Source: Streptomyces sp. TS71-3 (GTDB lineage: Bacteria; Actinomycetota; Actinomycetes; Streptomycetales; Streptomycetaceae). From it: 64,000 nucleotides of DNA. Below the pieces are notes generated by a model. The model saw only the letters and a program-made list of their open reading frames with translations. It was not told the DNA's origin and did not search any database. Made by a program: the position numbers and the translations under genes. The stretch is from assembly GCF_018327685.1 (NCBI RefSeq), contig NZ_BNEL01000003.1, positions 3,712,947-3,776,946 on the forward strand, in the 5' to 3' direction. Shown here piece by piece: positions 3,064-20,073 of the stretch. Position 1 is the first letter of the stretch, and each line of letters begins with the position of its first letter.

Positions 3064-4218
3064 ATGCACCATGAGCGTGAAGCGCAAGAGCAGTACCAGC
3101 GGCAGGAACAGCGGGAGCCGCACGGGTCACGGCACCCGGGCGCCCGCCGCAGACGGCGCATTCCGGCCAAGTCGGCGGGAGCGGCGCTGCTGGCCGTGAT
3201 GCTGACCGCCTGTTCCAGCGGTCTGGCCGCCACCACCACCGAGGTGGCCCCGGCCCAGCAACCCGAGAACCTGCTGCCCAAGGCGTCCGAGGAGGGCAAG
3301 GTCCTCTGGTACACCACCTTCGCCGACGACGACGTGGACGGCATGATCGCCGCCTTCCAGAAGAAGTACCCGAAGGTCAAGGTGGAGGCGCTGCGGCTGA
3401 GCGCCGACAAGCTCCCCTCCCGCCTGGTCACCGAGCAGCGCGGCGGCAAGTACAACGCGGACGTCATCACCGCGGACAGCGAGCCCGTCTACCAGCTCAT
3501 CAAGGTGGGCACGCTCGCCCCGTACCGCGTTCCGGAGACGCCCGACCTGCCCAAGGAGCTGAAGAGCCTCCCGGACGGCTACGGCAACGTCGTGTACGTC
3601 AACACCAGCGCCATCGCATACAACCCGAAGTCGGTTGCCTCCCAGCACCTGCCGGTCCCCAGCTCCATCGAGGACCTCACCAAGCCGGTGTGGAAGGGCC
3701 GCTTCTCGATCGACCCCAACGCCATCAACTGGTACGAGGGCCTGATCACGGCCATGGGCCACGACAAGGCCCTCGCCCTGGTGAAGAAGCTCGGCGACAA
3801 CGCGCCCCGGCTGGTGGAGAGCCACACCCAGTCCCTGACGGAGGTCCAGTCGGGCGAACCGGCCGCCGTGGCCAACGCCTACGGCTACAAGGCCGCGAAG
3901 CTGGCCAAGAAGACGCCCGATCGGATCGCGTTCGCCAACACGGACCCGCTCCCGTCGGCCGCGGTCCTCGCGGAGATGGCGAACAAACCGCCGCACCCGG
4001 CCGCGGCCAAGCTCTTCATCGACTGGATCATGTCGAAGGCCGGCCAGCAGCAGGTCGTGAGCATCAGCAACCACGTGTCGCTGAGCGACCAGGAGCACAA
4101 CGACGACTCGGTGTGGAACCCGGGCAAGTGGAAGCCCGCGTGGTCGACGCCGGTCATCCCCGCGGACACGTACGACCGCTACCTGGACGAGTACCAGAAG
4201 GCGCTGCACGCCGCCTGA
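3064..4218 (+). CDS. Iron-type ABC transporter substrate-binding lipoprotein
   Basis: The protein has 384 residues. A basic, unusually long n-region of about 32 residues precedes the hydrophobic segment and the lipobox LTAC with Cys50, so the mature protein is lipid-anchored outside the membrane. The fold is that of extracellular solute-binding proteins related to Fe3+, 2-aminoethylphosphonate and thiamine binders, with the early strand VLWYTTFADDDVDGMI and a later NWYEGL segment near the ligand cleft. No earlier or later in-frame start fits better. It opens an operon with the permease (133 bases downstream) and ATPase. The ligand is unknown; iron is only one possibility. Confidence 0.85.
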   Translation: MHHEREAQEQYQRQEQREPHGSRHPGARRRRRIPAKSAGAALLAVMLTACSSGLAATTTEVAPAQQPENLLPKASEEGKVLWYTTFADDDVDGMIAAFQKKYPKVKVEALRLSADKLPSRLVTEQRGGKYNADVITADSEPVYQLIKVGTLAPYRVPETPDLPKELKSLPDGYGNVVYVNTSAIAYNPKSVASQHLPVPSSIEDLTKPVWKGRFSIDPNAINWYEGLITAMGHDKALALVKKLGDNAPRLVESHTQSLTEVQSGEPAAVANAYGYKAAKLAKKTPDRIAFANTDPLPSAAVLAEMANKPPHPAAAKLFIDWIMSKAGQQQVVSISNHVSLSDQEHNDDSVWNPGKWKPAWSTPVIPADTYDRYLDEYQKALHAA

Positions 4219-4351
4219 CGTGCCCACGCGGCGGCACCCACCACACGGCCCGCCGCGCCGGGCACACCCCCTTCACTCCCGTTCCCGACTCGCCCCGTCA
4301 CCCCCGCCCTGACACCAGCCCTACCCACCGACCTCCCAGGACGGCCACGCC

Positions 4352-6133
4352 ATGAGCCTGATCAGCCGCTCCCGCCCCGGTGCACCACCGGCCCGAGCCC
4401 CGCTGCGCCCCGCCCGCACCACCCGACTGAGCACCGCCCTGGAGTGGTTCCGCGACCCCCGCCACATCCTGCTGGCCCTGGTGGCCCTCGTGGTCGCCTA
4501 CCTGGCACTGGTGCCGGCCGCCACCATGCTGGTCGCCAGCCTCCAGTCGTCCTTCCTCAACACCGGGCCGGTCGAGTGGACCCTGCGCCACTACACGGAG
4601 ACGCTGGGCAGCTCCGACTTCTGGGTGCTGGTGGGCAACTCCTTCGCCTATGCCGCGGCCACGGCCGTCCTGTGCACCGTCATCGGCTTCGGGCTCGCCT
4701 ACCTGGTGACCCGGACCAACACCCCGGCGAAGTTCTTCGCCCAGGTCGCCGCGCTGGTCCCGCTGATCATCCCGGGCATCCTCAACACCGTCGCCTGGGC
4801 CCTGCTGTTCGCACCGAACACCGGCGCGCTGAACGTTCTGCTGCGCGACCTGCACCTGCCGACGTTCGACATCTACTCGCTGGCCGGCATGGTGCTGGTG
4901 CAGTCCATGCACGTCACGCCCGTGGCCTTCCTGATGGGCACCGCTGCCTTCACCTCCATGGACTCCTCCCTGGAGGAGGCCGCCCTGAGCTCGGGAGCAC
5001 CGCCCTTCCGCGTCTTCCGCACCATCACCGCCCGGCTCATCAGGCCGGCCATCATGTCGGCGGCCCTGCTGATGTTCGTGCAGACCATCTCGACGTTCGA
5101 GGTGCCGCAGCTCATCGGCGTTCCCGGGCACACGTTCGTGTTCGTCAGCCGGATCTACAAGGCCCTGCAGACCTTCCCGACCGACTACGGAACCGTCGGT
5201 GTCATCGGCATCTTCATCCTCGTCGTGGCCACCCTCGGGCTGTGGCTCTCGCGGCGGATGAGCGGGTCGGGCGCCGCCGCGCAGACCATCACCGGCAAGG
5301 GCTTCAGGCCCACCGTGACCGACCTCGGCCGGTGGCGGTGGCTGGGCTTCGCCATCTTCGTGCTGTTCTTCATCGCGGCCGTGGTGCTGCCGCTGCTGAT
5401 GCTGCTCTGGTCGTCGCTGCTGCCCGGCTACGAGCCGCCGTCGCTGTCGGCGCTGCACCACCTCACCCTGGCCAACTACCGTGAGCTCCTCGACACCCCC
5501 GCCCTCACCTCCTCGGTCCGCAACAGCCTGATCACCGCCGTGCTCGCCGGTGCCATCGTCACCGTGCTCAGCTCGCTCGTCGCCTACATCACCGTCAAGA
5601 CCAAGGTGCGCGGCAGGGGCGTGCTCGACGCGCTCGCCACGGTCCCGCTCGCGGTGCCCAGCGTCGTGATGGGCGTCGGCATCCTGTACTGGTACCTGAC
5701 CGTCCCGATGCCCTTCCAGATGTACGGCACGCTGACGATCCTGGTGATCGCCTTCGTGACGATCGGGCTGCCCTACGGGCTGCGGTACATCGTGCCCGGC
5801 ATGTCCCAGATCAAGGACGAGTTGGAGGAGGCCGCGGCCGCCAGCGGCGCGACGTGGCTGCGCACCTTCCGGCGCATCTACGTGCCGCTGCTGGTGCCCT
5901 CGCTGCTGGCCGCCTTCCTGTACACGGTCATCGTCGCGTTCCGCGAGATCTCGGCCGCCATCTTCCTCTACACCCAGGACACCCAAGTGGTGTCGGTGAC
6001 GATCTACCAGGAGTGGTCCAACGGCAGTTACCCGATCGTGGCCGCCCTCGGCGTCGCCATCGTCGTCTTCCTCGCCGTGATCGTCGCACTGGTCCGCCTG
6101 CTGGGCAGCAGGACCGGGCTGAACCGTCAATGA
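4352..6133 (+). CDS. ABC transporter permease, fused double domain (FbpB-like)
   Basis: At 593 residues this is a single-chain permease in which two binding-protein-dependent transport domains are joined, as in iron and related importers. Each half has about six membrane helices. The first half carries the cytoplasmic EAA loop as EEAALSSGAPPFRVFRTI, the second as EEAAAASGATWLRTFRRI; these contact the ATPase. It therefore forms the whole channel without a second permease. The ATPase gene starts 25 bases downstream, so the two are cotranscribed. Confidence 0.9.
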   Translation: MSLISRSRPGAPPARAPLRPARTTRLSTALEWFRDPRHILLALVALVVAYLALVPAATMLVASLQSSFLNTGPVEWTLRHYTETLGSSDFWVLVGNSFAYAAATAVLCTVIGFGLAYLVTRTNTPAKFFAQVAALVPLIIPGILNTVAWALLFAPNTGALNVLLRDLHLPTFDIYSLAGMVLVQSMHVTPVAFLMGTAAFTSMDSSLEEAALSSGAPPFRVFRTITARLIRPAIMSAALLMFVQTISTFEVPQLIGVPGHTFVFVSRIYKALQTFPTDYGTVGVIGIFILVVATLGLWLSRRMSGSGAAAQTITGKGFRPTVTDLGRWRWLGFAIFVLFFIAAVVLPLLMLLWSSLLPGYEPPSLSALHHLTLANYRELLDTPALTSSVRNSLITAVLAGAIVTVLSSLVAYITVKTKVRGRGVLDALATVPLAVPSVVMGVGILYWYLTVPMPFQMYGTLTILVIAFVTIGLPYGLRYIVPGMSQIKDELEEAAAASGATWLRTFRRIYVPLLVPSLLAAFLYTVIVAFREISAAIFLYTQDTQVVSVTIYQEWSNGSYPIVAALGVAIVVFLAVIVALVRLLGSRTGLNRQ

Positions 6134-6158
6134 GCCTGAGTACTCAAAGGAGAGTGTC

Positions 6159-7334
6159 GTGATCGAGGTACGCGGCCTGGTCAAGCGTTTCGAGGGACGG
6201 GCGGTGTCACGCAACGCCGTCGACGGTATCGACCTGGAGGTCCCCGAGGGAAAACTCGTCACCTTGCTCGGCCCGAGCGGCTGCGGCAAGACCACCACCC
6301 TGCGTCTGATCGCCGGGCTGGAACGGCCCGACGCGGGCCGGATCACCATCGGCGGCAAGCTGGTGTGCGCGCCCGAGGAGGGGGTGTTCGTGGGCGCGCA
6401 CCAGCGGCCCATCGGCGTGGTCTTCCAGTCGTACGCGGTCTGGCCCCATATGACCGCCATCGAGAACGTGATGTTCCCGCTGCGGTCCGGGCAGAAGCGG
6501 CTGCCGCGCGCCGAGGCGCGCCGCCGTGCCATGGAGGCCCTCGACCTGGTCGGCCTCGCCGACCTCGCCGACCGGCCGTCGCCCGCGCTCTCCGGCGGCC
6601 AGCAGCAGCGCATCTCCCTGGCCCGCGCCCTGACCAGAGAGCCCGAGGTCCTGCTGCTGGACGAGCCGCTGAGCAACCTGGACGCCGGCCTCCGTGACCG
6701 GGTCCGCGACGAGATCCGGGGGGTGCAGCAGCGCCTCGGCATCACCACCGTCTTCGTCACCCACGACCAGGACGAGGCGCTCGCGGTCTCCGACGAGGTG
6801 ATCGTCATGGACCGCGGCCGGATCGTGGAGCGCGGCGCGGCCCAGGAGATCTACGCCGCGCCCCGCGAGGAGTTCACCGCGCGCTTCATGGGGATCTCCA
6901 ACAGCCTGCCCGGCACGGTCCTGTCCCTGGGCGGCAAGACCGTCGAGATCGACCTCCCTCAGGGCAGGCTGAGCTGCCTGCCCACGGGCACGCTGAGCGA
7001 GGGCACTAGCGTCAACGTCTTCCTGCGCCCGGAGAGCCTGGTGCTCTCCCGCAAGGACCCGTCGGGTCGCGGCTGGAAGGGCACCGTCGAGTTCAGCATC
7101 TACCACGGCGACTGCTGGGACTACCACGTGCGCGTCGGCGACACCCTGCTGCGCTCGCGCATGTACCGGGAGAAGATCGGCCTCGCGCACGGCGACCCGG
7201 TCTTCGTGGTCCCCGAGGAGGAGAGCGCCATCGCGATCGCGGTGAGCGAGGACTCCACCGGCGCCGCTCCCTCGGACCCTGACGCGGCGACGTCGCTCTC
7301 GGCCACCGGTGCGAAAGGCGGCACCGTTCGGTGA
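6159..7334 (+). CDS. ABC transporter ATP-binding protein with TOBE domain
   Basis: The 391-residue ATPase starts at GTG with AAAGGAGAG upstream. It has Walker A GPSGCGKT at 38-45, Q-loop Gln90, signature LSGGQ at 144-148, Walker B ending DEP at 168-170 and switch His202. A C-terminal TOBE_2-like beta domain follows from about residue 270, typical of iron, sulfate and sugar importers. It powers the permease encoded just upstream. A low-complexity tail rich in Asp, Ala and Ser ends the protein. Confidence 0.92.
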   Translation: MIEVRGLVKRFEGRAVSRNAVDGIDLEVPEGKLVTLLGPSGCGKTTTLRLIAGLERPDAGRITIGGKLVCAPEEGVFVGAHQRPIGVVFQSYAVWPHMTAIENVMFPLRSGQKRLPRAEARRRAMEALDLVGLADLADRPSPALSGGQQQRISLARALTREPEVLLLDEPLSNLDAGLRDRVRDEIRGVQQRLGITTVFVTHDQDEALAVSDEVIVMDRGRIVERGAAQEIYAAPREEFTARFMGISNSLPGTVLSLGGKTVEIDLPQGRLSCLPTGTLSEGTSVNVFLRPESLVLSRKDPSGRGWKGTVEFSIYHGDCWDYHVRVGDTLLRSRMYREKIGLAHGDPVFVVPEEESAIAIAVSEDSTGAAPSDPDAATSLSATGAKGGTVR

Positions 7335-8799: not shown

Positions 8800-9143
8800 G
8801 GACACCGCAAGAGGAGAGGGGATCCTTCCATCCCCGAGTCTGCCTCGCCGGCCCGGTATATCGCCAATCATCCTCCCTCTCCCCGCCGCGAACGGGTCCC
8901 TCGCCCGTCGACCCGGTGCACGCCCTGGGGATGCTCCGGAGAAAGTGGCCTGACCAATACGTCGATTCGATGTCGAATTCGATGGCCCCGACGCCGGGCG
9001 GTCGGGCCGGATCTGCCCGGACGGAGGCACGTCCGCCGCGCGTCAACGGCTCCGAAATCCCCGCGCAACCTGGTGGTTCAGGCATGCAACGCGTGATGGG
9101 TTTCCATGTCCTCGTCGAGCCGTTAGCATCCGAGCTGTCGATA
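8800..9143. other. Intergenic region, no gene found
   Basis: Open frames here are GC-rich antisense artefacts without recognisable products. The stretch holds the promoter of the TraR-like gene and, around 8960-8985, repeated ATTCGAT words. Nothing else is evident before the CebR-like box. Confidence 0.5.
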
Positions 9144-9165
9144 ATATGGGAGCGCTCCCATATTA
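9144..9165. promoter_or_regulatory. CebR-like operator, perfect 22-base palindrome
   Basis: The core TGGGAGCGCTCCCA at 9148-9161 is the palindrome described as the binding site of CebR, the LacI-family repressor of cellulose and cello-oligosaccharide use in Streptomyces. Here the palindrome extends perfectly to 22 bases through AT-rich arms. It lies 52 bases upstream of the start codon of the decayed GH74 gene, the normal place for such an operator. CebR itself is not in the window. Confidence 0.85.
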
Positions 9166-9216
9166 ATTGGTCTGAAGACTGTGCGGGTTCGGGTGGCAGG
9201 AGAGGAGAAGGGGCCC

Positions 9217-9549
9217 ATGCGAAGAAGTCCTTACCTACGGCCTGTGGCACTCGACCGACGCGGTGCCACGTTCACCGAGGCCAAGGGCGTCGATGCCGCA
9301 GACTCCATCGGATTCGGCAAGGCTGCCCCGGGCGCGGCATATCCCGCTCTACTCCAGCGCCAAGAGCGTCGGGATGCGCGCCATCCACCGCTCCGGCGAC
9401 GTCGGCACGGCCTGGCCGCGCATCAACGAGGTCGCCTGCCAGTGGGGTTGGACCGGCGCCTCCACAACCAGTGACCCTCGGGTCTACGGGCGGGTGCATG
9501 TGTCGACGCGAACGGTGGCGGCTTCCAGTACGGCGACCTGGCCGGCTGA
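9217..9549 (+). pseudogene. GH74 xyloglucanase/endoglucanase remnant
   Basis: Pieces of a GH74 beta-propeller C-terminus can be read in three frames: YGLWHSTDA, then ATFTEAKGVDAADSIGFGKAAPG, then YSSAKSVGMRAIHRSGDVG through WGWTGASTTSDPRVYGRVHV, then NGGGFQYGDLAG and stop at 9547-9549. Intact enzymes have more than 700 residues; here only about 110 codons remain. A ribosome site (AGGAGAGGAGA) and ATG at 9217 with MRRS survive and run directly into the C-terminal part, so an internal deletion joined the start to the end, followed by at least three frameshifts. The operator upstream is intact. Non-functional with high certainty. Confidence 0.8.
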
Positions 9550-10001
9550 CGGCAACAGGGCCGACGGACCGGTCAGGTCGGCGGGGCGCGGGCCTTCCTG
9601 GGGAGGCGGGCCCGCATCTGGCCCCGTACGCCCGGGCGGTGCGTACGGGGCCGCCGGCACCCGAAGCGTGCGCGGACGCGGGCAGCCGGAGAAGGTGCTC
9701 GGAGCAGACGCCGGAGAGGGCGCTCGCCGCGGCCAGGGGGCTGCCAGGCATGGCGATAGGGGCGCCTGACGCGGCGCCGGGGCGCTGAAGGGGGCGTCGG
9801 GGCGCGGCGCCGGTGGTGCGGTGATCGTGCGTGCGGCGTGCCGGGAACCGGAGGCCGCGCGCGAAGGGTGGGGCCGCTGACTTGCCAGCACTGTGACGGT
9901 AATGGAGCGTCCTACCAGGACACCGGCGCACACTGGCAGGCCAGCGGCCCGTCCGCCGCCCCGGTGAACCGCCGGCCGGCACGGTCGCACGGGGAGGAAT
10001 C
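9550..10001. other. Intergenic region, no gene found
   Basis: After the GH74 remnant stop there is GC-rich sequence without a credible coding frame. It ends with GGGGAGGAA in front of the small gene at 10002. Further eroded pieces of the GH74 region may be hidden here but none was recognised. Confidence 0.4.
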
Positions 10002-10490
10002 ATGTCATCACCACATACATCCCACCCCTCGCGCCAGCAGCCCCACCCCGCGGCGATCGCGCGCATCGCCCCGGCCTGCCGCCAGGCCGCAGCAGGGCGG
10101 CACACCGGCACATCCGGGCGCGCCCTCGTGCCCGCGCGGACCTCCACGCCTTCGGACCGACGGGATTCCCCGAGGAGAGGCGCGTCCGCCGGAGCCAGGG
10201 CGCTTCCGCCCGCCTCACCGTCCTCCGCGCCGCGCCGGTCGCGCCCCGCTTCGGCCGCCGTGCCGGCCGGGGTGGCCCCGCCGGCTGAGGAGCCGGAAAC
10301 AGCGACCGGTAGAGGCCTGTCGCCACAAGACCCGGAAACGGTGGCCGAGCCCGACTCGCGGCCGCCCGTCGTGGGCTGGCTGCTGGTGCCCGCCGGGCTC
10401 TGGACCGAGTTCGACGCCCCGCAGGTGCGGAGGCTGCACAGCCTCGGCCTGAAGAACATCTCCGGCCCGCCGCCGGCCCCGACCGCGTAG
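10002..10490 (+). CDS. Hypothetical protein, 162 residues
   Basis: ATG is preceded at good distance by GGGGAGGAA, the main support for translation. The first 110 residues are rich in Pro, Ala, Arg and Ser and look disordered. The last 40 (VGWLLVPAGLWTEFDAPQV then a short helix) look more ordered. No family was recognised, and no signal peptide is present. It converges with the acetyltransferase gene 26 bases away. It could be an accidental frame, since open frames are common in such GC-rich DNA. Confidence 0.4.
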   Translation: MSSPHTSHPSRQQPHPAAIARIAPACRQAAAGRHTGTSGRALVPARTSTPSDRRDSPRRGASAGARALPPASPSSAPRRSRPASAAVPAGVAPPAEEPETATGRGLSPQDPETVAEPDSRPPVVGWLLVPAGLWTEFDAPQVRRLHSLGLKNISGPPPAPTA

Positions 10491-10516
10491 CAACCGCCCC
10501 GGCGGCTCCCGCGGTT

Positions 10517-11092
10517 TCAGCGCGTGGCGGTCCCGCGCCGGGCATCCGGGCCGGGGGCCGTGGTGGCGGGCGTCGTGGTGGCGGGTGCCGTAGTCGGCCC
10601 GGGCACCGCGGCGGTCACGAGGGGCTTCGCGTAGCAGCGGCTGAGCTCGTCGAAGCGGTAGGGCCCGAACCTGGCGCACAGCTGGTAGCCGCTGGAGACA
10701 TACAGGGCGATGGCCTCTGGCAGCCTGACGCCGGTCTCCAGCACCATGCGGGTACGGCCGGCCGTGCGGGCGTCGTCCTCCAGCGCGGCCAGGACCAGCC
10801 GGGACAGGCCACGGCGGCGCGCCTCGGGGACCACGTACATGCGTTTGACCTCGGCGTCGCCGTCGGTGTACCCCTCGGCGTTCGCGTCCTGCGCGCGCCA
10901 GCCGCCGGTGGAGAGCGGGGTGCCCAGGTCGTCGTAGACGATCAGGTACAGGCCCGACGGCGGCTCGAACATGGCCGGTTCGAGCGGCGTGACATCACCC
11001 TCGTCCCCGTACCGCACGGCGTACTCGCGCTGCACGCGGTCGTTCAGCGCGACGGCGTCGGGGTGAGCGAAGGACACACGGCGGATATCCAT
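10517..11092 (-). CDS. GNAT family N-acetyltransferase
   Basis: The 191-residue protein has a GNAT domain over residues 1-155. The acetyl-CoA site is in VKRMYVVPEARRRGLSRLVL, with RRRGLS as the variant of the (Q/R)xxGx(G/A) loop. MVLETG and ALYVSSGY match the later strands and the typical YxxxGF-like segment. The last 30 residues are a low-complexity Ala/Pro/Thr tail. The substrate is unknown. It lies just downstream of the TetR gene on the same strand, about 50 bases apart, and may share its transcript. Confidence 0.85.
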   Translation of the reverse strand: MDIRRVSFAHPDAVALNDRVQREYAVRYGDEGDVTPLEPAMFEPPSGLYLIVYDDLGTPLSTGGWRAQDANAEGYTDGDAEVKRMYVVPEARRRGLSRLVLAALEDDARTAGRTRMVLETGVRLPEAIALYVSSGYQLCARFGPYRFDELSRCYAKPLVTAAVPGPTTAPATTTPATTAPGPDARRGTATR

Positions 11093-15692: not shown

Positions 15693-16844
15693 CTACCCGG
15701 CCGGTACCAGCGTGACCTTCGACGGGTCCACCGACAGATGCACCGCGGTACCGGGCTCGATGGAGCGCGTCGGATGGCACCGGATGCGCATCTCCCGCTT
15801 GCCGACGCGGACCACATGGTCGACGGCGTCTCCGAGGTACGCCCGGGTCAGCACCTCGCCCTTCCACTGGTTGACCGCCTCGGCGCTCTCCTCGGTGGCG
15901 ATGTCCAGGGCCTCGGGCCGTATGGACAGCAGCACGTCGGTGCCGGAACCGGGTGGTACGGCGGGCCCGCTGGTCCCGCTCTCCGTCCGGCAGACCAGCC
16001 GGCCGTCCGGGGTGTCCACGGCCACCTCGTAGCCGCGCACCGAACTGACCACGCCGGCCACGAAGTTGGAGGTGCCGATGAACTCGGCGACGAATTTCGT
16101 CGCCGGCCTGGTGTAGATCTCCCGCGGGCTGCCGATCTGCTCGATCGCGCCCTCGTTCATCACCGCGATCCGGCTCGACATCACCAGCGCCTCGGACTGG
16201 TCGTGCGTGACGTACACGGCGGTCAGGCCGAGTTCGCGTTGCAGCCGCTTCAGCTCGAAGCGCATGCTCTCCCGCAGCTTGGCGTCGAGGTTGGACAGCG
16301 GCTCGTCGAGCAGCAGCAGTTCCGGCTGCACGACCAGCGCCCGGGCGAGTGCCAGACGCTGCTGCTGGCCGCCGGAGAGCTTGGTGGCGGGGCGGGACGC
16401 GTAGGCCGACAGCTCCGTGACCTCCAGCAGCCGCGCCACCCGCTCCCCGATCTCCGAGCGGCCGGGCCTGCGCCCGCGCGGCAGCACGTCCAGCGGGAAC
16501 GACACGTTCTTCGCGACGGTCATGTGCGGCCAGATGGCGTACGACTGGAACACCATGCCCAGCGCACGGCGGTTCGCGGGGACGCTCACCCGTCTCACCG
16601 CATCGAAGAGGACCCGGTCGGAGAGGGTGATCCGGCCGCGGTCCGGCATCTCCAGTCCCGCCACCGAGCGCAGGGTCGTGGTCTTGCCGCACCCCGAGGG
16701 ACCGAGCAGCGTGAACAGCTCGCCGTCCCGCACCTCGAAACTCGCGCCCCCGACCGCGTGGACGCGGGCGCCCTCCGTACCGGACCCCCGCCGTCCGCGC
16801 GCGGCGGAGCCGTAGCTCTTCACCAGGTTGTCCACGATCAGCAT
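15693..16844 (-). CDS. ABC transporter ATP-binding protein (iron-type)
   Basis: The 383-residue ATPase has Walker A GPSGCGKT at 48-55, Q-loop Gln100, LSGGQ at 156-160, Walker B ending DEP at 180-182, and YVTHDQSEA as the switch. A TOBE_2-like C-terminal domain follows. A Gly/Arg-rich insertion (residues 12-25) interrupts the first strands. It is the last gene of a three-gene operon, 16 bases after the permease, and is the functional counterpart of the ATPase at 6159-7334. Confidence 0.92.
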   Translation of the reverse strand: MLIVDNLVKSYGSAARGRRGSGTEGARVHAVGGASFEVRDGELFTLLGPSGCGKTTTLRSVAGLEMPDRGRITLSDRVLFDAVRRVSVPANRRALGMVFQSYAIWPHMTVAKNVSFPLDVLPRGRRPGRSEIGERVARLLEVTELSAYASRPATKLSGGQQQRLALARALVVQPELLLLDEPLSNLDAKLRESMRFELKRLQRELGLTAVYVTHDQSEALVMSSRIAVMNEGAIEQIGSPREIYTRPATKFVAEFIGTSNFVAGVVSSVRGYEVAVDTPDGRLVCRTESGTSGPAVPPGSGTDVLLSIRPEALDIATEESAEAVNQWKGEVLTRAYLGDAVDHVVRVGKREMRIRCHPTRSIEPGTAVHLSVDPSKVTLVPAG

Positions 16845-16860
16845 GTCCCGTTCCTCCGGG

Positions 16861-18618
16861 CTAGTTGGCGGTGTCGGACTTCAGGCCCGTACGGGCACCG
16901 AGGCGCTGGGCGAACAGGACCAGGACGACGAGGATCAGCACCATGCAGACGCCGAGCGCCGCGAGCGTGGTGAGCTGCCCGTTCTCGAACTGCTCCCAGA
17001 TGAGCACGGAGAGGACCTCCGTGCCGGGGCTGTACAGCAGGATCGTGCTGGACAGCTCGCGGAAGGACACGACGAGGATGTAGATCCATCCGGCGATCAG
17101 CCCGCTGCTCGCCAGCGGCACCAGGATCCGCCGGAACGTCTGCCACCACGACGCGCCGAACACGGTGGCCGACTCCTCCAGCTCGCCCGACATCTGGGTC
17201 ATGGCGGCCGTCGCGTACCGCATGCCGTAGGGCAGGTAGCGGGTGCAGTACGAGATCAGCAGGATCAGGAGCGTCCCGTAGATCGGCAGCGGGACCCTCA
17301 GATAGACGAACGCGAGCGCGAGGCCCAGCACGAGTCCGGGGATGACGATCGGGGTGAACGCCAGCAGGTCCAGCAGCCGCCTGCCGGGGATCCGGGTGCG
17401 CACCACGGCCCAGGAGACCACGGCGGCCAGCGCCATGACGATGGTGGCCGCGCCGACGCCGAGGATGAGCGAGTTCTTCAGCGCGGTGGCGGCGAGCGGC
17501 AGGTGGAGCACCGTCGAGTAGTTCTCCAGCGACATGCCGCGCAGCGCCTTCATCGACGGGGTCGTGTACGTCTTCAGCAGCGACGCGTAGACGAGGACCG
17601 CGACCGGCAGCACCACCGTCAGCAGGAAGTACAGCACCACACCGGCGCCCACCCAGGGCCGGGCCCGCCCGAGGGCCACCGGCTGCGGGCGGAACGCCTT
17701 GCCGGTCACCGTCTGGAACGAGCGCCCGCCGCGCCCCAGCCACGACGACAGCAGCACCCCGACGACCGCGATGGCGAGCAGACCCACCGCATACGCTCCG
17801 GCGCTGCCGTAGTCGATGGGATACGACCGCAGCACGAAGTAGATCCGGCTGGTGAACACGTAGATGCCGTTCTGGAGCCCGAGCAGGCCCGGCACCTCGA
17901 AGCTCTCCAGGGACTGCACGAACATCAGCAGCGCCGCCGACATCAGCGCGGGCCGCATCAGCGGCAGGGTGACCCGGCGCAGCACGGTCAGCCGGGACGC
18001 CCCCGACATCGCGGCGGACTCCTCCAGGGAGGGGTCCATGCCCCGGAACGCGGCCACCATCAGCAGGAACGCCACCGGGGCGAGATGCAGCCCCTGCACC
18101 CAGACCATGCCCCAGACGGTGTACACGTCGAAGGGGCTCGCTCCGAACAGCGGCTTGAAGAAGAGGGTGTTGACGAGCCCGATGGACGGGTCGCCGAGGA
18201 AGATCCAGGCAGCCGCGTACAGGATGCCCGGCACGATCAGCGGGACCAGGGACGCCGCGAAGAGCAGCCCCTTGAACGGCAGGTCGGTGCGGACCTGGAG
18301 GTAGGCCAGCACGGTTCCCACGACGAGGGCGAACGCGGCCGCGCCCACGGCGAATTCCAGGGAGTCCAGCATCATCCGGCCGGCCTGGGCGTTGCCGCCG
18401 TATGCGCGTCTGAACGCGTTGAGCGACAGGCCGTGGTCGCCGACGAAGGTGTCGTGCAGGAGGTAGCCGAGCGGGACGAGGGCGAGGAAGCCGACGACCA
18501 GCATGGCACCGCCCACGACGAGGATCTGGGGCGAGAGCAGCCGGCGCAGGCGGGCCGGCTCGTCGGACACCGGAACCGGCATCGAGGGCCCGGCGGACAG
18601 GTCGGTCGTGACGGTCAC
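16861..18618 (-). CDS. ABC transporter permease, fused double domain (FbpB-like)
   Basis: This 585-residue permease carries two transport domains, each with about six helices, and two EAA loops: EESAAMSGASRLTVLRRV in the first half and EESATVFGASWWQTFRRI in the second. The design equals that of the permease at 4352-6133, but the sequences differ widely, so it is a distinct system and not a recent copy. It lies 64 bases downstream of the binding-protein gene. Confidence 0.9.
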   Translation of the reverse strand: MTVTTDLSAGPSMPVPVSDEPARLRRLLSPQILVVGGAMLVVGFLALVPLGYLLHDTFVGDHGLSLNAFRRAYGGNAQAGRMMLDSLEFAVGAAAFALVVGTVLAYLQVRTDLPFKGLLFAASLVPLIVPGILYAAAWIFLGDPSIGLVNTLFFKPLFGASPFDVYTVWGMVWVQGLHLAPVAFLLMVAAFRGMDPSLEESAAMSGASRLTVLRRVTLPLMRPALMSAALLMFVQSLESFEVPGLLGLQNGIYVFTSRIYFVLRSYPIDYGSAGAYAVGLLAIAVVGVLLSSWLGRGGRSFQTVTGKAFRPQPVALGRARPWVGAGVVLYFLLTVVLPVAVLVYASLLKTYTTPSMKALRGMSLENYSTVLHLPLAATALKNSLILGVGAATIVMALAAVVSWAVVRTRIPGRRLLDLLAFTPIVIPGLVLGLALAFVYLRVPLPIYGTLLILLISYCTRYLPYGMRYATAAMTQMSGELEESATVFGASWWQTFRRILVPLASSGLIAGWIYILVVSFRELSSTILLYSPGTEVLSVLIWEQFENGQLTTLAALGVCMVLILVVLVLFAQRLGARTGLKSDTAN

Positions 18619-18682
18619 ATGATCACCTCAGGGTGCGCAGGAGCGTGCGGAAGGAACGTGGGGGCGGGAGGGGGGAACCGGG

Positions 18683-19807
18683 TTACGAGCCGTCCGCCAG
18701 GACCCCGCGCAGTTGCTCGTCGTACCGCTTGTCCCAGGAGCCGCTGGAGGTGGCGAGGGTCTTCACGTCGAAGGGCACGAGGTTGAGGCCCTTGAGGCTG
18801 GTGTCGCCCGGCACCTTCGTCGACGGCGTCATGCGCTGGGAGACCAGGACCTTCTGGCCCTCGTTCAGCATCCAGTCGTAGAACAGCCAGGCGGCCGCCG
18901 GGTGCTGGGCGCCCTTGAGCATGCCGACGCCGTTGGGGCGCGGGAAGGCGGGGATCGGGTTGGTGCCGTCCGGCAGCCGGTACGAGACCGGGGCGCCCTT
19001 CGCCTCGGCCTGCTGGGTGATGTACGTGTAGTTCATCGAGTCCAGCGGCGTCTGGCCCGCCCCCAGCAGCGACATGATCGTGGTGTGGCCCTTGGTCACC
19101 TTGCCGTTGGCGACGATGCCCTTCCAGAGCGCGTCGACCTGCTGCCGGGACTTGCCGTGCGTCAGCCAGTAGTGCGAGACGTTCTCGTACCAGTCGCTGT
19201 CCGTGGGCTCGAGGGTGAGCTTGCCCCGGTACTTCGGGTCCGCCAGGTCCTCCCAGCTGTGCGGGATGTCGGCGCTCTTGACGAGGTCGGTGTCCCAGGC
19301 CGGCAGGAAGACGTTGAACCGGTCGGCGGTCCAGCCCTTGAAGCGGCCCGAGAAGGGGACCTTGGCGAGGCCCGGTCCGCTGTAGTCGGCCAGGATGTTC
19401 TGCTCGCCGAGCTCGGTCATCTCCAGGAAGTCGCTCTCCACCGCGTCGGCGTCCAGCTTCCTCGCCTGCGACTCCTGGAAGATGCGCTGGAGGATCGTCT
19501 CGGAGTTGGCCCGGAACATCGAGATCTTGAGTCCGAACTGCTTCTGGAACTTCTTCTGGACGACGGCGGCGACGTTGTCGGTCAGCGATGTGTAGACCTT
19601 CAGCGTCCCCTCGTCCTTGGCCAGTTGCACGGCTTTGGCACGCTGCTGCGCCCGCGGTCGTGACTGGATGTCGTCGTACACCTTCTGCGCCGCCTGGGAG
19701 GAGACGTCGGCCACTCGGATCTGGCCCGAGTCGGCCGCGCCCGCCCCGCAGCCGGTCACGAGCAGAAGAGAGAAAACGCAGGCCACGCCGCACGTTCGGG
19801 TCCGCAT
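18683..19807 (-). CDS. Iron-type ABC transporter substrate-binding lipoprotein
   Basis: From MRTRTCGVACVF, with GAAAGGAAGG upstream, the protein has 374 residues; a longer frame exists but lacks a ribosome site. The signal peptide ends in lipobox VTGC. The mature part has VYTSLTDNVAAVVQKKFQKQ near the start and SDWYENVSHYW in the ligand region, features of the Fe3+/phosphonate binding-protein family. It opens the second importer operon. The ligand is unknown. A weak GGT-N3-AC word lies about 45 bases upstream, only loosely like the GntR site. Confidence 0.85.
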   Translation of the reverse strand: MRTRTCGVACVFSLLLVTGCGAGAADSGQIRVADVSSQAAQKVYDDIQSRPRAQQRAKAVQLAKDEGTLKVYTSLTDNVAAVVQKKFQKQFGLKISMFRANSETILQRIFQESQARKLDADAVESDFLEMTELGEQNILADYSGPGLAKVPFSGRFKGWTADRFNVFLPAWDTDLVKSADIPHSWEDLADPKYRGKLTLEPTDSDWYENVSHYWLTHGKSRQQVDALWKGIVANGKVTKGHTTIMSLLGAGQTPLDSMNYTYITQQAEAKGAPVSYRLPDGTNPIPAFPRPNGVGMLKGAQHPAAAWLFYDWMLNEGQKVLVSQRMTPSTKVPGDTSLKGLNLVPFDVKTLATSSGSWDKRYDEQLRGVLADGS

Positions 19808-20073
19808 TGCCCTTCCTTTCGGCCAGATCTGCTGTCGCGCGTCTAGCTGTCTTACCATTTGCCCTTTCAGGCGGGAAGGGGGTGCGCACGGCCTTTGCCG
19901 CCGGAAGGGGGCGGTGGAAGGGCCCTGGCGGCGTCAGGCGCCAGGGTGGACGGCCGGGAGTCGGTGGGCGGGCAGATGGCGCCGGGACGGGCGCCGGCCC
20001 CGTCCGCTCGCGTCGGTGACGGAGCGGGCGGGGCCGGTGCGGGGAACGGGCCGGTAGGGGCGGTGCGTGCAGG

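What the first reader, a model, noticed from the sequence alone, without database searches (positions are those of the whole stretch)
9144..9549. Intact CebR-like operator in front of a deleted GH74 glucanase
The 22-base palindrome with core TGGGAGCGCTCCCA and the following ribosome site and ATG are preserved, but the coding sequence jumps from the first codons to the last about 110 residues of a GH74 enzyme, with at least three frameshifts. The operator has outlived its gene, so it may now only titrate repressor or drive a short RNA. It suggests loss of xyloglucan or cellulose use, or duplication elsewhere.
Basis: partly seen in the sequence, partly recalled or inferred. Interest (0 to 1): 0.7.

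Follow-up and report, generated by a model that had tools for sequence, protein, structure and literature searches.

The report
Decayed xyloglucanase gene keeps its switch
A soil Streptomyces has lost all but the tail of a plant-polysaccharide enzyme gene while the DNA switch in front of it is still perfect; a related species carries the same dead gene with the same switch, so it looks like an old shared loss whose switch may survive partly by luck.

Summary
Window 9147-9160 is TGGGAGCGCTCCCA, the published CebR box, inside a 24-bp palindrome (9142-9165). It is one of 10 perfect copies in the genome (0 for the reversed control); the other nine precede LPMO, GH5, GH6, GH9, GH12 and solute-binding-protein genes. 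Behind it lie a ribosome site, ATG (9217), a few codons, then only the last ~105 codons of a GH74 xyloglucanase (9233-9549) with -1, -2 and +2 frameshifts. No other GH74 was found in the genome, while GH48/GH6/GH9/GH12/LPMO genes remain: GH74 was lost, not cellulolysis as a whole. New: a syntenic locus taken to be Streptomyces sulfonofaciens holds a longer but also broken GH74 behind the same perfect core, sharing the -1 frameshift, so decay probably predates the split. 60 of 60 other GH74 loci fetched are full-length; 21 of 60 have the perfect box. The core stayed 14/14 while the remnants diverged to 78% identity, but allowing for how it was found, chance gives ~0.13 (0.017 uncorrected), so selection is not shown. 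A hairpin (9620-9655) is 36/36 identical, leaving a CebR-controlled short transcript possible. Most likely a relic.

The parts
9142..9165 (.). 24-bp perfect palindrome; core 9147-9160 TGGGAGCGCTCCCA = published CebR box
   Evidence: consensus as printed in passages of PMC4898821 and PMC5332605
9198..9231 (+). purine-rich ribosome site, ATG (9217-9219) and first codons (MRRS...) of the lost GH74 gene
   Evidence: resembles leaders of intact box-bearing GH74 genes (by eye); against L104 28 of 31 aligned bases identical, 2 gap columns, over 9200-9231
9233..9549 (+). remnant of the C-terminal ~105 codons of a GH74 xyloglucanase, old stop TGA 9547-9549; frameshifts near 9259/9260 (-1), 9343/9344 (-2), 9507/9508 (+2)
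9217..9474 (+). 85-codon open frame left from the old start, mixed frames; the frame from the matching start in L104 reads differently
   Evidence: not evidence of a gene
9620..9655 (+). GC-rich hairpin after the remnant without a T-run, 36 of 36 bases identical in L104
   Evidence: the consensus terminator scan did not report it

Best explanation
The locus is the shell of a CebR-repressed GH74 endo-xyloglucanase gene that most simply died in a common ancestor of this strain and Streptomyces sulfonofaciens (shared -1 frameshift), and then lost most of its coding sequence (more in this strain) with further frameshifts. Operator, ribosome site, start codon and downstream hairpin are still there. 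Shown: box sequence and position, remnant, frameshifts, no other GH74 found, syntenic broken gene behind a perfect core in the second species. Inferred: CebR still binds here and is released by cello-oligosaccharides as at its other sites, so a roughly 0.5-kb transcript without a useful product may still be made; no function is needed to explain its survival.
For: 10 perfect boxes against 0 control, the other nine before cellulolytic or solute-binding-protein genes; box plus GH74 is a usual arrangement: 21 of 60 fetched full-length GH74 loci have a perfect core just upstream, about 48-58 nt before the first residue in the class whose leader resembles this one (56 nt here); three frameshifts; only remnants of GH74 in G000 and G045, full-length genes in G370, G177 and the query's own genome G359; synteny, perfect core and shared -1 in L104.
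Against: The codon-position pattern between the two remnants (19, 26, 36 differences at positions 1, 2, 3) lies between neutral (p=0.07 against 1:1:1) and five intact GH74 pairs (p=0.04), so part of the divergence may predate death, or the deaths may be partly independent. Core 14/14 and hairpin 36/36 in both are somewhat more than neutral decay predicts without correction (0.017; 0.04 after 1400 places). Only one other species with this locus was found.
Confidence: 0.8

Rival explanations
1. Box and hairpin are kept by selection because a CebR-controlled short RNA (about 9165-9655) or small product is still made and used.
For: Core 14/14, ribosome site and start 28/31, an 18-base run 9596-9613 and the hairpin 36/36 identical while the remnant is 240/306.
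Against: No identical 14-base window in the remnant itself (0 of 320); the frame from the old start reads differently in the two species; no Rfam match up to E=1 in 8800-10600; fold z-scores -1.8 here and 0.1 in L104; a 16-base identical run without known role also occurs upstream at 8996-9011, and downstream 48 of 997 windows are identical.
Confidence: 0.1
2. The box now works only as a decoy that titrates CebR.
For: Perfect consensus without a working gene.
Against: It is 1 of 10 perfect sites, so its removal should change free repressor little (inference); survival by chance is acceptable, ~0.13.
Confidence: 0.03
3. The box stays because it also controls the divergent DksA-like gene (minus strand, start about 8799) or the downstream 162-codon ORF (10002-10490).
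For: Both neighbours have counterparts in L104.
Against: Distances about 350 and 840 bp, with the hairpin in between for the second; of 23 named loci around the neighbouring reductase gene only the S. sulfonofaciens one has a perfect core, as far as the held flanks reach.
Confidence: 0.05
4. The frameshifts are sequencing errors in a gene that is merely truncated.
For: Another cellulase gene (GH6-CBM2, L080) also changes frame twice against L105, which could be errors.
Against: Loss of ~2 kb is not a base-calling error, and L104 has its own broken copy with one frameshift in common.
Confidence: 0.02

Closest known systems
CebR regulon of cellulolytic Streptomyces (box TGGGAGCGCTCCCA)
   Same: Identical 14-mer, same classes of target genes; GH74 is named among enzymes of strongly cellulolytic strains (passages of PMC4898821 and PMC5332605)
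   Different: Here one target gene is dead
GH74 xyloglucanases (for example the solved chain 6p2o_A, molecule name Xyloglucanase)
   Same: Remnant matches residues 672-765 of the L067 GH74, which matches 6p2o_A over 727 residues
   Different: Only the C-terminal ~105 codons, three frameshifts
Exocellulase pseudogenes Tcur_4566 (GH48) and Tcur_4570 (GH6) of T. curvata
   Same: Decay of cellulase genes in an actinomycete that keeps other genes with CelR sites (passages of PMC3377646)
   Different: There exocellulases; the passages seen do not speak of a box in front of the dead genes

Membership tests
CebR operator | 14-bp palindrome TGGGAGCGCTCCCA | tested here: met
CebR operator | Genome encodes the repressor and other target genes with the same box | tested here: met
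   LacI-family gene L078:6324-7379 beside a box-bearing solute-binding-protein gene and a GH1 gene with box TGGAAGCGCTCCCA. NCBIfam listed only LacI-family models below their cut-offs for it, so the name CebR rests on this arrangement
CebR operator | Binding by CebR, released by cellobiose | not testable with these tools
   needs ChIP, gel shift or RNA-seq
GH74 | Sequence similarity to the GH74 catalytic domain | tested here: met
   E=2.2e-21, C-terminal part only
GH74 | Complete open frame from signal peptide to C-terminus | tested here: not met
   truncation and three frameshifts
Ancestral pseudogene shared with S. sulfonofaciens | Synteny and a common disabling change | tested here: met
   collinear flanks, five blocks at 85-91% and three at 73-81% identity; -1 at the same codon. 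Codon-position test undecided
Functional non-coding RNA | Conserved RNA body or known family | tested here: inconclusive
   no Rfam match, remnant not conserved, but hairpin 36/36 and an 18-base run; only two sequences

The most novel reading that the evidence does not exclude
The promoter-operator and the hairpin of a dead xyloglucanase gene have been kept across two species as a CebR-controlled transcription unit with a new non-coding role (a short cellobiose-induced RNA or a shield for the next gene).
Probability: 0.1. Interest if true: 0.6.

Novelty: new member of a known kind. Interest (0 to 1): 0.33.

Why it matters
It gives a two-species example of a regulon losing a target gene while the operator persists, so the decay of an operator without its gene can be measured. 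Counts of perfect CebR boxes have been correlated with cellulolytic ability (PMC4898821, passages); orphan boxes such as this one are a small error in that count.

Tried and rejected
Pfam on four translations gave nothing. The plasmid collection gave one match, a GH74 region of Nonomuraea gerenzanensis, used as first query. A 24-base palindrome scan of genome contigs found nothing (records of this genome may be left out there). Rfam: nothing. Promoter and terminator consensus scan of 8850-10050: 0 and 0, so the promoter is not located. A search of 394 family genomes with window 8900-10000 at E<=1e-52 gave no further syntenic copy; a more decayed one could fall below that limit. Box-like sites with 2 mismatches were dropped as a class because they equal the control. 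Open-frame lengths of some GH74 loci were in a wrong frame; one search replaces them. Codon positions printed as 0, 1, 2 are third, first, second. The 3' end of the remnant alignment was poor and is replaced. The 1-mismatch box of L110 lies about 5 kb from the reductase gene and was not followed. Control pairs of other boxes between the two species were found through the box itself, so they cannot test its conservation.

Full report
Where it is. The window is the last 64 kb of contig C3 of a 9.79-Mb, three-contig genome. Its genus is taken to be Streptomyces because G045, listed as same genus, appears to be S. sulfonofaciens (see below; inference). Whether this contig end is a chromosome end was not tested; the DnaA C-terminal domain match lies on the same contig at 0.917 Mb.

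The box. 9147-9160 reads TGGGAGCGCTCCCA inside a 24-bp perfect palindrome, 9142-9165. The genome has 10 perfect copies and none of the reversed control; base composition of the window predicts about 0.14. With up to two mismatches there are 72 against 73 in the control. The string is the published CebR binding site (passages of PMC4898821 and PMC5332605). The other nine perfect copies stand before three LPMO_10 genes, two GH6, one GH9, one GH12, one GH5-CBM2 and one solute-binding-protein gene next to a LacI-family regulator. A GH1 beta-glucosidase gene has the one-mismatch box TGGAAGCGCTCCCA, the form listed for bglC in PMC5332605. So the box belongs to a CebR-type regulon.

The gene behind it. 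The ATG at 9217 is 56 nt behind the core. In full-length box-bearing GH74 genes with a leader of this kind the core lies about 48-58 nt before the first residue, and leader and first codons look alike (by eye). After a few codons the sequence jumps to the C-terminal end of GH74. A 775-aa GH74 (L067; it matches the solved xyloglucanase 6p2o_A over 727 residues) matches at residues 672-765 with E=2.2e-21. Against 20 intact genes the remnant has a one-base loss near 9259/9260, a two-base loss near 9343/9344 and a two-base gain near 9507/9508, and ends on TGA at 9547-9549. At 168 columns that are invariant in those 20 genes the remnant differs at 18, 11 of them among the 135 first and second codon positions; each intact gene left out in turn differs at 0 to 5 such positions.

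No other GH74 found. Two different GH74 queries find in this genome only the remnant and, with the query that carries a cellulose-binding module, three further matches confined to that module. The query finds full-length genes in G370 and G177, and in G359, its own source. Cellulolysis as such is not lost: GH48 is complete and GH6, GH9, GH12, GH5 and LPMO genes are present. One of the two box-bearing GH6 genes, with a CBM2, changes frame twice against its G045 relative; this may be decay or sequencing error.

How usual is box plus GH74. 181 of 392 genus genomes, this one included, have a DNA match to 9080-9580 at E<=1e-10. I fetched 60 of the listed places: 20 of the best 21 after the window itself and 40 chosen from the rest of the list, short partial matches included. 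60 of 60 are full-length open GH74 genes; 21 of 60 have a perfect core in front (from 60 nt inside to 500 nt before the estimated first residue) and none has only a one-mismatch core. The remaining matching places were not fetched. Some loci without a box follow what looks to me like the end of a GH48 gene (by recall, not tested); in S. scabies the GH74 gene is thought to be served by boxes of its neighbour (table note in PMC5332605).

A second species with the same dead gene. Of 392 genus genomes, 17 (this one included) match the upstream neighbours at E<=1e-40, and in the listed places only G045 has them next to a GH74 match. Its contig has the same length (259,938) and content as NZ_BNCD01000014.1 of Streptomyces sulfonofaciens JCM 5069, one of 23 named loci, so I take them to be the same genome (inference). 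The flanks are collinear, five blocks at 85-91% and three at 73-81% identity. Behind a perfect core (L104:10001-10014) and the start GTGCGAAGACGTCC it has a longer GH74 remnant in four pieces, about residues 577-769 of the 775-aa GH74, and no full-length GH74. The one-base loss near 9259 is shared, so the death is most simply ancestral; the -2 and +2 changes are not shared. As far as their held flanks reach, none of the other 22 named loci has a GH74 match or a perfect core; one has a one-mismatch core some 5 kb away. 394 family genomes, partly the same as before, gave no further syntenic copy at E<=1e-52.

Did selection keep the box? The remnants are 240/306 identical with 11 gap events; upstream DNA is 212/266 with 19. 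The core is 14/14. Taking the remnant as neutral, an unchanged core in both lineages has probability 0.017; but since the finding was picked for its perfect box in this strain, only the other branch counts, and the probability is 0.13 (0.12 with the upstream yardstick). So survival by luck is acceptable. A 16-base identical run without known role occurs upstream too, at 8996-9011. The hairpin at 9620-9655 is 36/36 identical (0.04 after 1400 places, a number I set by hand); it forms a long stem in both species but the stretches are not unusually stable (z -1.8 and 0.1). Hairpins of at least 9 pairs follow 13 of 17 scanned intact GH74 genes, three of 20 not being scored; there was no shuffled control. 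The codon-position test between the remnants is undecided: p=0.07 against equal positions, p=0.04 against five intact pairs.

Verdict. The best reading is an old relic of a CebR-controlled xyloglucanase gene, shared with S. sulfonofaciens; a working short RNA or decoy is possible but not supported. Paper searches for CebR with GH74 (4 papers), CebR with pseudogene (10 papers; passages of one read), pseudogene with decoy and titration, S. sulfonofaciens with cellulose and retained operators of pseudogenes showed in their listings and passages no report of this case; the library lacks most subscription papers.

Noticed in passing
L080:7253-9281 (G000:C1 about 4300252-4302280): Box-bearing GH6-CBM2 cellulase gene changes reading frame twice against its G045 relative: a second regulon gene in decay, or sequencing error.
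   Followed up: partly
window 10002-10490: Plus-strand ORF of 162 codons, no Pfam match, with a counterpart in L104 (43% identity) and a well conserved tail PPVVGWLLVP-GLWTEFDAPQ.
   Followed up: partly
window 3064-7334 and 15693-19858: Two ABC-transporter-like gene sets (named by eye from the ORF list); parts of the second match the counterpart of the first in L104 at 63-68% identity.
   Followed up: no
L104:10083-10400: In G045 the old signal-peptide region is followed by a low-complexity stretch with PDSATV repeats before the GH74 remnant.
   Followed up: no
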